A DNA stretch of 64,000 nucleotides, taken from the NCBI GenBank assembly GCA_022702545.1, contig JAHRBC010000006.1, positions 2,790,001-2,854,000 of the forward strand. Reading direction: 5' to 3'. The translations under genes and the position numbers were made by a program. Of this stretch, positions 19,433-23,712 are shown in pieces. How positions within the stretch are numbered: the stretch's first letter is position 1; each line of letters opens with the position of its first letter. The notes under the pieces were generated by a model, which was not told the origin of the DNA, did no database searches, and saw only the letters and a program-made list of their open reading frames with translations. The DNA comes from Phycomyces nitens. Lineage: Eukaryota > Mucoromycota > Mucoromycetes > Mucorales > Phycomycetaceae.

Positions 19433-22199
19433 TTAGAGCTTGTCGTAGTACTTGTCGAGACCGGGGATATCCTCGACGAGACCCTTTCTCTTACGGACAG
19501 CACGGATGATGTCGTAGACCTTGTTTCCGGGCTCGAGAGGGTTACCGCTCATTCTATCCCAGTGATCAAAGACAGCCTGGGGGAAGGCCTGGCCACCAGT
19601 GGCAGCACGGAGATCGGCGGTGAAACCAAAGGACTCGTTAATGGGCAAGTGAGCCTTGACGGTGACAATGGGGGTACCGACGCGAGGCTCTTCAGAGATG
19701 ACCGTACCACGACGTCTGTTGAGGCAAGAGTAGATACCACCAATGACGGAGTCGGGGCACTGGATCTCGACAAGGTAGACGGGCTCCTGGATACCAGGGG
19801 TGGCAGTCAAGACTGAGGCGTAGATGACACGGCGACAGGTGGGGATGATCTGTCCACCACCTCTGTGGATAGCATCAGCGTGGAGAACAACATCGAGAAT
19901 GTTGAAACGGATACCACGCATGTTCTCCTCAGCAACGGGACCTTCCTTGGTGGCCCACTGGAAAGCGGCAACGCAGGAATCCTTGATTTCGTTGAGGTAC
20001 TGGACGGCCTTGGTGACATCGATCAACAAGTTGGGGCCAGTGCCATCAGGACCGAAACACCAGATCTTACGGGCCTCGGTAACATCCCAATTGTAATTGT
20101 CAGCGAGAGTACGGGCACGGATCTTGAAATCGTCCTTGGGACCAATCTTGCCAGCATCGATTTCGTTGGCAAGATCAAGGTCAAGGGGAAGAGCACGCAT
20201 GAAGATACGGTTGTGCTTGTTGGGGGACTTGGAAAGACAGTCGATGGTGGACTCGGCAGTGACGGTCTCACGGTACTGGACAACGGGGTCACCGAACTTG
20301 AGGGGAACCTGGGCGTGGTCCTCCTCGAGATCCTTCAAACAGATCTCCAAATGGAGCTCACCAGCACCGGCAACAATGTGCTCACCAGAGTCAGAGGTGA
20401 AGGTCAAGACACAGGGGTCAGACTTGGAAAGACGCTTGAGACCCTCGACGAGCTTGGGCAAATCGTTGGCGTTCTTGACATCAACGGCAACCTGGACGAC
20501 AGGGGAGACAGAGAACTTCATGACCTTCATGTTGTGGGCAACCTCGGAGGTGGTGATGGTTCCGGACTTGACCAAGAACTGATCGACACCGACAAGACCG
20601 ATAATGTTACCGGCAGGGCAGTCATCAATGGCCTCGACGTTACGTCCCATCATGAGGACGGTACGCTGGATGGACTTGACGGAAAGGTCGGACTTGGAGC
20701 CGGGGACGTAGTTGGGACCCTGGATTCTGACCTTGAGACCGGCACGGACGGTTCCGGAGAAGACACGACCGAAAGCGTAGAAACGACCCTTATCGGAGGT
20801 GGGAACCATCTTGGAGACGTAGAGCATCAAGGGACCGTTGGGGTTGCAGTCTCTGATACCAATGGCACACTCATCGTCCATGGGACCTTCGTAGAGGGAG
20901 GTAACACGGTATTTCTGAGCAGTGACAGGGGAGGGAAGATGGATACAGATCATCTCCAAGAGAGCATCACCAGCGGGCAAGAACTTGCGCATGACAACCT
21001 TGAGGAGCTGCTTGCCCTCAAGATCTCTCTCCTCAGCCTTGAGTTTGATCTCGAGCTTCTCGAGAAGAGTGGTGACCTGGTCCTTCTTGAAGTTCATGAC
21101 AGAGTCAAAGATCTTGAAGATGGGGTCGAGGATGAACATGTTAAAGGCACGCTCGAGGGGCTTGCCAGCAGCATCAGTGGACTTGGAAGACCACTTCTTG
21201 GTCTTGGGGTTGAAGTAGTTCTCACCCCAGAGCTTCTGCATCATCTTCTCCTTATCGACACCGAACTTCTTGGAGTAACGGACGGCGAACTGACGGAGAG
21301 TGAAACCCCAGCCGTGGAGACCAGAGGCAAAGGCAACGGTACCGCGCTCGGGGTAGACCTGGACATCACCAAGAGCCTCATCGAGGTAGGTGGAGATGAT
21401 GACGTTGACGGACTCGATGGTACGGGCAAAGGTCTATTCAACAATACATTTTTTTTGTTAGATTTCAATTGACAAGACTGACCCAAAGACCAAAAAAACT
21501 TACGTTGTACAACTCCTCCTTGCCCAACTGCAACTCAAGAAGAGCACGATCGACCTTGTTGATGACAATGACGGGCTTGATGCGCTCAGTCAAGGCCTGA
21601 CGAAGGACGGTCTCGGTCTGGACACAGACACCATCGATACAATCGACGACGACAAGGGCACCATCAGTGACACGGAGGGCAGCGGTAACTTCAGAAGAGA
21701 AATCAACGTGACCGGGGGAATCGATCAAGTTGATCAAGAAGGAAGAACCATCGGTCTTTTGGCCCTTGATCTCCTTAATGTCATCAGGGTTCTCCATCTG
21801 GAAGTACATGGAAATAGCGGTAGACTTGATAGTAATACCACGCTCCTGTTCATCCTTGCGGGTGTCCATGAAACGGGTCTCACCAGCACGACCAGCAGAA
21901 ATAATACCGGCCTTGGAGACAAGGGAATCAGTCAGGGTAGACTTGCCGTGATCGACGTGAGCAATGACGGACATGTTACGGACATTGGTAACCTTGTCCA
22001 TGAGATCACGGATCTCCTCAATAGTAAAGTTCTACAATATAAATAGATTAGAAATAGTCTTGTTATTTCACTAGACACTTTGTGCCTTGCAAAAAGTTGT
22101 CTACATACCACTAAACCATATAGTTAGTAAACTGTTCAATACCCAAGACCATCAATCAATAGGATTGATGCTTATCACGGTCTGAGTCGACTTACCCAT
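19433..22199 (-). CDS. EFT1: Translation elongation factor 2 (eEF2)
   Basis: GTPase that moves tRNA and mRNA through the ribosome after each peptide bond. Exons on the minus strand: 22199-22196, 22110-22109, 22031-21504, 21433-19433, giving 844 residues, the normal size. The start [16 protein letters not shown] is only obtained by joining ATGG, a two-base exon TG and the third exon. G1 is AHVDHGKST (residues 26-34), and DSPGH and NKVDRA mark G3 and G4. The diphthamide loop [13 protein letters not shown] has the modifiable His near the C-terminus, and the protein ends DKYYDKL. Introns are 85, 77 and 70 bases. Codon use is highly biased, which also keeps a long frame open on the other strand. 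Upstream lies a short AT-rich tract with TATATA boxes at about 22321-22358. The gene symbol follows yeast usage. Confidence 0.97.
22109..22110 (-). other. Two-nucleotide exon of eEF2
   Basis: On the minus strand the order is ATGG, donor GTAAGT, then a perfect TACTAAC branch site (22129-22123), TTTAG, the dinucleotide TG, and a perfect donor GTATGT leading to the acceptor TTGTAG before AACTTTACT. Joining ATGG+TG+AAC gives Met-Val-Asn, the expected eEF2 start. Direct joining of the first and third exons would be out of frame. Confidence 0.85.
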
Positions 22200-22669: not shown

Positions 22670-23712
22670 TTAGTGGGGTTTAATGGCAGTCTTGAAATCG
22701 ATGCCGTAAAGATAGGAAGAGACCATGACGGTTGTTGCACCGAGAACAAAGGGGATAGTTGGTTGGAAATCAAACAAATAGAAACTGATGATTCCCGAGA
22801 CAATAATCGACAGACTGGTAGCAAATCCCTTTAGGATATTGTCAGCGTACTTGACCACAATGGCCACCAGCAATCCACCCAAAGCCTGGTTCATTACCAC
22901 CACCCAGGTCAACCAGTCATATCCCTGGAGCATACCACCTGTCCATATAATCTCTCGGTCATAGGCAATCATGCCCACCAGTGAAAAGAATGCTCCAGAC
23001 AAGCCCAACTGGATATTGCGCACCCACATGGAAGTATCAGAGGTCTTTAGGATCTTTTCAAAATAGCAGCCAGCAAAACCAGAAGACACGCAGCTCGTCA
23101 GCACAGCCAGCAGGCCAACAATAGGGCTCTGTTCGTCAGACTGACTTGGTTCACTCTGGATGCTCTGGGACTGGACCAAAGTGACGCCCACCATCAATAA
23201 TACCAAGGCAAACCAGCGCTCACGGGGTAAAGACCTTCCCAACAATAGGACCGAAAATAATGCTGTCGAGAGGATCTTCATCTGATAGGTGACCTGAAAC
23301 GTGGCCGCCTCGAGATTACTGAGTGCAACATAGAGCAGGTTGTTTTGAAGTGCATAGAGTCCCGAAGGAATCAGCATCGTGAGGGTGTCGCGAGGCTTGG
23401 CCAAGATGTCTTCTTGGACCATTTGCCGAAAGTTTTTCCAGCTGCCTTGTTGATGGTACATGACTGCCAGACAGGCGATTATCTTGAGAACCTCGGCCAA
23501 GAAAACAGCGGTGGATGCAACGTACATTGACTGATCAGGGCGTTGTATGATGCGAGAATACCGCATCATCAAGACCAGTGTGCTGTTCTGGACCACCAGG
23601 ACAATCAGTGACAATTGCTTCCGGCTCAGATGGAAGATTGTGTCCTCTACACCATCATGTCAGCATCATCTTCTCCTCTTCTCTCGAATCTGTTTACCCT
23701 TTTGTGGTCCAT
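22670..23712 (-). CDS. Nucleotide-sugar transporter (SLC35A family)
   Basis: Golgi or ER membrane antiporter that brings UDP-galactose or UDP-GlcNAc into the lumen in exchange for UMP. Exons on the minus strand: 23712-23698 and 23644-22670, giving 329 residues with about ten hydrophobic segments. The first exon codes only MDHKR; the 53-base intron has a GCTGAC branch-like site and ends TAGAG. The family motif LVLMMRYSR comes early, followed by SSTAVFLAEVLK-like text (here ASTAVFLAEVLK). Further conserved blocks are LYALQNNLLYVALSNLEAAT, FQVTYQMKILSTALFSV and GFAGCYFEKILKTSD. The C-terminal part contains KGFATSLSIIVSGIISFYLF. Substrate cannot be decided between UDP-Gal and UDP-GlcNAc. Confidence 0.92.

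What the first reader, a model, noticed from the sequence alone, without database searches (positions are those of the whole stretch)
22032..22199. Two-nucleotide exon at the eEF2 start
The conserved start Met-Val-Asn-Phe-Thr can only be built from ATGG + TG + AACTTT. The TG is flanked by TTTAG with a perfect TACTAAC branch site 12 bases further upstream, and by a perfect GTATGT donor. One- and two-base exons are extremely rare, and splicing across one poses a real steric problem; a stepwise (recursive-like) removal of the 85- and 77-base introns is likely. It lies in one of the most expressed genes, so it must be spliced efficiently.
Basis: partly seen in the sequence, partly recalled or inferred. 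Interest (0 to 1): 0.9.

Follow-up and report, generated by a model that had tools for sequence, protein, structure and literature searches.

The report
Two-base exon in fungal eEF2 gene
In a Phycomyces fungus, the gene for the essential protein-making factor eEF2 appears to contain an exon only two bases long, kept in both copies of the gene, which tests how small an exon the splicing machinery can handle.

Summary
On the minus strand eEF2 reads ATGG | 85-nt intron | TG | 77-nt intron | AACTTT; of 94 GT-AG models enumerated only this one gives MVNFT. The decisive new evidence is a second eEF2 gene on another contig: 97.6% identical in protein, with start-proximal introns that show no BLAST similarity, it has ATGG | 113 nt | TC | 107 nt | AATTTT. 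That is the same two-base exon with a silent change, GTG to GTC. A Phycomyces nitens database protein is identical to that copy and starts MVNFT. Among 43 motif sites in the genome I found one further well-supported two-base exon (sorbitol dehydrogenase) and one weaker case. Among 120 listed homologues, eEF2 models of related fungi fail at this start more often than the rest. Exons this short are known, down to one base in Arabidopsis and Fusarium, so this is a new member of a known rare kind. I favour removal of two ordinary short introns one after the other by intron definition; the order is undetermined. No RNA was available here.

The parts
22196..22199 (-). coding part of exon 1, ATGG (start codon plus first base of codon 2)
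22111..22195 (-). intron 1, 85 nt, phase 1, GTAAGT...TTTAG
22123..22129 (-). perfect TACTAAC branch-site-like motif in intron 1 (presumed branch A at 22124)
22109..22110 (-). exon 2, the two-nucleotide exon TG (bases 2-3 of the Val-2 codon GTG)
   Evidence: paralogue has TC
22032..22108 (-). intron 2, 77 nt, phase 0, GTATGT...TTGTAG, branch-like TTCTAAT
21504..22031 (-). exon 3, 528 nt, begins AACTTTACT (Asn-3)
   Evidence: matches PDB eEF2
21434..21503 (-). intron 3, 70 nt, 59 of 65 aligned bases identical to the paralogue
19433..21433 (-). exon 4 with stop codon; completes an 844-aa eEF2

Best explanation
Bases 22110-22109 (TG) are a constitutive two-nucleotide exon of the eEF2 gene of a Phycomyces species (P. 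nitens or a very close relative). It supplies bases 2 and 3 of the codon for Val-2. It lies between two short, conventional GT-AG introns, each with its own strong donor, branch-like site and acceptor. Most likely each intron is recognised across itself (intron definition) and the two are removed one after the other, because the acceptor-binding and donor-binding factors would overlap across two bases. Either order leaves an intact remaining intron. Shown from sequence: the sites, the frame, the uniqueness of the MVNFT model, and conservation in the paralogue with a silent change. Inferred: that splicing occurs this way in cells, that it is sequential, and that it is efficient.
For: Only 1 of 94 enumerated models gives MVNFT in the window copy, and 1 of 32 in the paralogue. 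The paralogue on contig C1 (L009) has ATGG|TC|AATTTT; its introns 1 and 2 give no BLAST match to the window copy, and similarity resumes at 22034, 3 nt before exon 3. Shuffles rarely produce the motif in either interval. A P. nitens database protein is identical to copy B over 844 aa and starts MVNFT. PDB eEF2 chains such as 7oya, 8q87 and 11hv align residue 1 of exon 3 with their residue 3, so two residues are expected upstream. Among the 120 listed eEF2 homologues, 24 of 36 that I grouped by name as Mucoromycotina do not start MVNFT, against 14 of 84 others that do not start MV[NK]F (Fisher p 2e-7). Eight of the 24 keep NFT and differ in what precedes it.
Against: No transcript was seen. The Mucoromycotina signal mixes paralogues, annotators and related sequences, and 12 of the 36 do start MVNFT; the 84 'others' include unnamed metagenome proteins. 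The P. nitens record may have been modelled by homology rather than from RNA. The splice motif on its own is not enriched in the genome: 14 found against about 29 expected from a Markov model trained on the window. So the frame and the paralogue, not the motif count, carry the argument.
Confidence: 0.93

Rival explanations
1. Another splice model joins ATG to exon 3 in frame without a two-base exon, for example one intron from a weak donor (GTGATA) giving MGKSTQT-NFTIEE, or a longer or different internal exon.
For: In the window copy one one-intron model and 12 further two-intron models keep the eEF2 frame; in the paralogue one further two-intron model does (MAEPNFT).
Against: Each of these uses at least one donor that is not GTA[AT]G. 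The paralogue has no open one-intron model (0 of 7). The alternative starts are not shared between the copies and appear in none of the 120 homologue N-termini printed.
Confidence: 0.03
2. Translation starts at Met-13 (MDKVTNV...), so the 5' splicing does not matter for the protein; the upstream pieces are untranslated.
For: 16 of 36 Mucoromycotina gene models begin at this Met or at the later MSVIAH.
Against: MV[NK]F starts are found in 70 of 84 other listed homologues. Several PDB eEF2 chains carry the N-terminal residues. The TG-to-TC change is silent and the two bases are exactly what the frame needs in both copies. An internal start is what an annotator would produce when it misses a two-base exon.
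Confidence: 0.02
3. The two introns form a nested unit: a stwintron or true recursive splice, in which removal of one intron creates a splice site for the other.
For: Introns 2 nt apart resemble stwintrons in layout; several stwintron papers concern fungi (abstract starts).
Against: Both donors, branch-like sites and acceptors are complete in the unspliced sequence. The -3 to +6 sequence of donor 2 is the same before and after intron 1 removal in both copies, and two exonic bases are retained.
Confidence: 0.02

Closest known systems
Single-nucleotide exon of Arabidopsis APC11 (PMC4674806; parts 1 and 2 of 3 of the text read)
   Same: Constitutive exon below codon size between two introns, needed for the reading frame; the authors propose intron definition combined with stepwise removal.
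   Different: One base, plant, proven there by cDNA and reporter constructs; not fungal, not eEF2.
Single-nucleotide exon of Fusarium CYP621A (PMC12940212, February 2026; whole text read in three parts)
   Same: Fungal; supported by frame and orthologue conservation; the authors report that nearly all gene models are wrong there.
   Different: One base, an Ascomycete P450 that the authors say is expressed only rarely, with RNA reads; described there as the first in a fungal gene. Here two bases, a Mucoromycotina fungus, a housekeeping gene and both of its copies, no RNA.
Plant 1-nt microexons of APC11 and VPS55 (PMC8831610; passages read)
   Same: Missing annotation yields proteins with a wrong or shortened N-terminus, as seen here in relatives.
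   Different: Plants, one base; the main text has no '2-nt' term.
2-5 bp exons in Arabidopsis, Drosophila and human (sentence in PMC12940212 citing Volfovsky et al. 2003; that paper is not held)
   Same: The size class includes two bases.
   Different: I saw only the citing sentence; it names no fungus.
Sago palm genome note (PMC8760474; passages read)
   Same: Reports a shortest annotated exon of 2 bp.
   Different: An annotation statistic in an uncharacterised plant gene, in the same table as a 5-bp intron; no test of it in the passages seen.
Stwintrons (abstract starts)
   Same: Two spliceosomal introns in contact, removed consecutively, in fungi.
   Different: In a stwintron one intron interrupts a splice element of the other; here all elements are intact and two exonic bases remain.

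Membership tests
Ultra-short constitutive microexon (1-3 nt) | Internal exon of a few bases flanked by complete 5' and 3' splice sites | tested here: met
Ultra-short constitutive microexon (1-3 nt) | Needed for the reading frame; skipping destroys the protein | tested here: met
   Sequence: skipping gives MELYY* in the window copy and MEFYY* in the paralogue; enumeration
Ultra-short constitutive microexon (1-3 nt) | Conserved between related genes | tested here: met
   Paralogue has TC at the same place with diverged introns; orthologous DNA of other species could not be seen
Ultra-short constitutive microexon (1-3 nt) | Included in mature RNA | not testable with these tools
   No RNA data held; indirect support from a P. 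nitens database protein
Stwintron / nested intron | An internal intron interrupts a splice element of the external intron | tested here: not met
   All splice elements are intact before splicing
Recursive splicing at a zero-length exon | AG|GT junction, with the 5' splice site regenerated by the first splice | tested here: not met
   AG-TG-GT and AG-TC-GT; donor unchanged by the first splice
eEF2 gene | Full-length eEF2 coding sequence | tested here: met
   844 aa, best homologues annotated as elongation factor 2; PDB eEF2 matches for the exon 3 reading

The most novel reading that the evidence does not exclude
Mucoromycotina carry a recurrent, long-lived class of two-base exons in core genes. 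The one in eEF2 is ancestral to the group and preserved through gene duplication while the flanking introns diverged beyond recognition, and the splicing machinery of these fungi handles two-base exons routinely. Skipping would place a stop at codon 6 in both eEF2 copies, so inclusion efficiency could also act as a control on eEF2 output.
Probability: 0.45. Interest if true: 0.75.

Novelty: new member of a known kind. Interest (0 to 1): 0.64.

Why it matters
Published models hold exon definition to be sterically infeasible across microexons (PMC8378409, passages). A two-base exon in what is normally one of a cell's most used genes is therefore a natural test of how far splicing by intron definition can go. 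Two natural copies with dissimilar introns (85/77 nt and 113/107 nt) in one genome let one separate what the spliceosome needs from accident. It may also explain faulty eEF2 N-termini in public Mucoromycotina annotations, and it suggests that other two-base exons are hidden.

Tried and rejected
Motif enrichment: the branch-YAG-NN-GTAWGT motif is not enriched in the genome (14 found, about 29 expected), so motif counts are not used as evidence. The tool's backwards-pattern control (261 matches) was higher still; I judged it not comparable and did not use it.

Other candidate two-base exons: of 43 sites (14, 29) I accept four: both eEF2 copies, sorbitol dehydrogenase L017, and (weaker) 3-hydroxyisobutyrate dehydrogenase L012. 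On viewing, L014 fits a 36-nt exon, L015 and L016 are ordinary exon ends, and L010, L013, L018, L019, L020, L022, L023 showed no supporting frame. Of the 29 CTGAY sites only five were viewed (L056, L058, L065, L071, L081) and none accepted; the other 24 were judged by an automatic frame scoring alone. That scoring is weak: it gave no model for 18 of 43 sites, eEF2-A among them, ranked eEF2-B tenth, and for L017 (first) and L012 (eighth) chose other intron ends than I favour. The 30 sites with GTGHGT donors were not examined. The 24 one-base sites were viewed and none accepted.

The 3-hydroxyisobutyrate dehydrogenase case rests on frame only: the P. blakesleeanus model starts downstream. For sorbitol dehydrogenase, Thr at the junction is not invariant: of 120 listed homologues a pattern count gave 51 N-T, 66 N-other (often Cys) and 3 unmatched. 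One moth gene model (P0135) also ends at this point, so broken models there are not specific to fungi.

Relatives' DNA: viral contigs gave no relative. Genome contigs gave 21 loci with prokaryote titles; L082 and L083 look like eukaryotic contamination by identity, none is evidently a Mucoromycete, and L082 has an uninterrupted MVNFT start (L083 not viewed). Intron RNA folds are unremarkable (z -0.71 and -0.96).

Literature: searches showed, in their (mostly capped) listings, no two-nucleotide exon of a fungal nuclear gene and no paper on an eEF2 microexon; subscription journals are mostly not held. The HLA-F paper matched '2 nt exon' only as table text on deletions. Two fungal mitochondrial papers that mention a single-nucleotide exon were not opened.

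Full report
What was checked. The eEF2 gene lies on the minus strand of the window, with coding exons at 22199-22196, 22110-22109, 22031-21504 and 21433-19433, giving an 844-aa protein. The two bases TG at 22110-22109 sit between TTTAG and GTATGT; TACTAAC ends 12 bases before the end of intron 1. I enumerated GT-AG models with introns of at least 40 nt that start at the ATG and end at exon 3. Of 13 one-intron models two are open, and of 81 two-intron models 22 are open. Of these, one one-intron and 13 two-intron models keep the eEF2 frame. Only one, with exon TG, gives MVNFT, and it is the only one of the 13 with two GTA[AT]G donors. Exon skipping reads ATG GAA CTT TAC TAT TGA.

The paralogue. 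Searching the window's own genome (49 Mb, 11 contigs) with exon 3 found a second eEF2 gene on contig C1. Its 5' end reads ATGG|GTAAGG ... GCTAATC ... TATAG|TC|GTAAGT ... TACTAAA ... GTTAG|AATTTTACT. One of 25 two-intron models and none of 7 one-intron models gives MVNFT, and the one that does uses the two-base exon TC; one other two-intron model keeps the frame, with a weak second donor. The two proteins differ at 20 of 844 residues, the coding sequences at 56 of 2532 bases, and 15 of 411 four-fold sites differ; intron 3 is identical at 59 of 65 aligned bases. BLAST finds no match in introns 1 and 2. A forced alignment gives 35 of 74 and 38 of 72 identical columns, and upstream only short TA-rich matches appear. 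BLAST similarity starts at 22034, 3 nt before exon 3, and ends at the last base of the stop codon; beyond that there is only one 45-bp match on the opposite strand. I infer that gene conversion has kept the coding part alike, while the 5' introns have diverged for longer. That both diverged intervals nevertheless hold a two-base exon that gives Val at codon 2, once as GTG and once as GTC, is the strongest evidence. In dinucleotide shuffles the full motif appeared in 2 and 0 of 20,000, a looser form in 136 and 27, and bare AG-TN-GT in 2378 and 568.

Which organism, and what others annotated. The best homologue is eEF2 of Phycomyces nitens; it is identical to copy B over 844 residues and starts MVNFT. 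From copy B's DNA that start requires the two-base exon, by the enumeration. I could not see whether the record rests on RNA. P. blakesleeanus eEF2 also starts MVNFT. Among the 120 listed homologues I grouped 36 as Mucoromycotina by name: 12 start MVNFT, 16 start at Met-13 or later, and 8 have another start. All 8 keep NFT and differ in what precedes it, for example MNFT, MGNFT, or a partial model starting at NFT. Among the other 84, which include unnamed metagenome proteins, 70 start MV[NK]F. The contrast is large (Fisher p 2e-7), but the sequences are related and some are paralogues. It suggests, without proving, that the 5' end is hard to annotate across the group for the same reason.

More two-base exons in the same genome. 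The pattern branch site + YAG + NN + GTAWGT occurs at 14 places in the 49-Mb genome, and both eEF2 copies are among them. Two other sites fit a coding frame. In L017, a sorbitol dehydrogenase, the exons read GCC AAT|AC|A TAC CCC: A-N-T-Y-P, where human sorbitol dehydrogenase and L-arabinitol dehydrogenase have N-T-W-P. The P. blakesleeanus protein has NTYP, and 13 of the first 14 listed homologues have N-T there (P0133 has N-I). Over all 120 listed, 51 have N-T, 66 another residue and 3 did not match, so what is general is that one residue belongs there, not that it is Thr. Without AC the frame is lost. Two fungal gene models among the 42 rows printed fail at this point: Rhizomucor P0156 ends at FRYCNT, and Lichtheimia P0157 departs after RRYCN. 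A moth model, P0135, also ends there, so this sign is weak. In L012, a 3-hydroxyisobutyrate dehydrogenase, two bases (AT) restore the frame inside the presumed targeting sequence. The P. blakesleeanus model starts further downstream and gives no support, so this case is weaker. A second pattern with 29 sites gave no further accepted case, but most of those were judged only by an insensitive scoring.

How it most likely works. Both introns are short and have complete, strong sites, so each can be recognised by pairing its own ends. Two bases are too few for donor-binding and acceptor-binding factors to sit side by side. A study of microexons argues that exon definition is sterically infeasible and that intron definition takes over, more easily when introns are short (PMC8378409, passages read). 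For the one-base exon of Arabidopsis the authors propose removal one intron after the other (PMC4674806, parts 1-2 of 3 read). The same fits here. The sequence does not dictate an order: the last base of exon 1 and the last base of intron 1 are both G, so donor 2 has the same -3 to +6 sequence before and after intron 1 is removed, in both copies. This is sequential splicing of two normal introns rather than recursive splicing or a stwintron.

Place among known things. One-base exons are documented in plants (PMC4674806; PMC8831610, passages) and in Fusarium CYP621A (PMC12940212, whole text), which calls itself the first fungal case and cites 2-5 bp exons in Arabidopsis, Drosophila and human. 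A sago palm genome note reports a shortest annotated exon of 2 bp (PMC8760474, passages). My literature searches showed, in their mostly capped listings, no two-base exon of a fungal nuclear gene. I therefore rate this a new member of a known, very rare kind. It is made notable by the gene, by its conservation in two copies with dissimilar introns, and by the sign that this genome has several.

Noticed in passing
L017 about 1438-1590 (about G000:C5:6966390-6966540, +): Second gene with a well-supported two-base exon: sorbitol dehydrogenase, exon AC in the Thr codon of FRYANTYP, matching N-T-[WY]-P of some solved homologues.
   Followed up: yes
L012 about 1460-1590 (about G000:C1:7365236-7365370, +): Probable two-base exon AT in the presumed mitochondrial targeting region of a 3-hydroxyisobutyrate dehydrogenase; supported by frame only.
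   Followed up: partly
window 19433-22034 against L009 2331-4934: The two eEF2 copies are about 97% identical from 3 nt before exon 3 to the last base of the stop codon, with no comparable match outside, suggesting gene conversion confined to the coding part.
   Followed up: partly
L017, sorbitol dehydrogenase gene: Two introns of this gene appear to have GC-AG ends (GCAAGT donors), by my reading.
   Followed up: no
L082 and L083 (GTDB records titled Bacteroidetes MAG and Gluconobacter aidae): Contigs that encode eukaryote-like eEF2 (70% and 68% identity), so probably eukaryotic contamination in bacterial assemblies.
   Followed up: no
window 22670-23659, minus strand: Open frame of 329 aa that resembles a nucleotide-sugar transporter (recalled resemblance, not searched), upstream of eEF2 on the same strand.
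   Followed up: no
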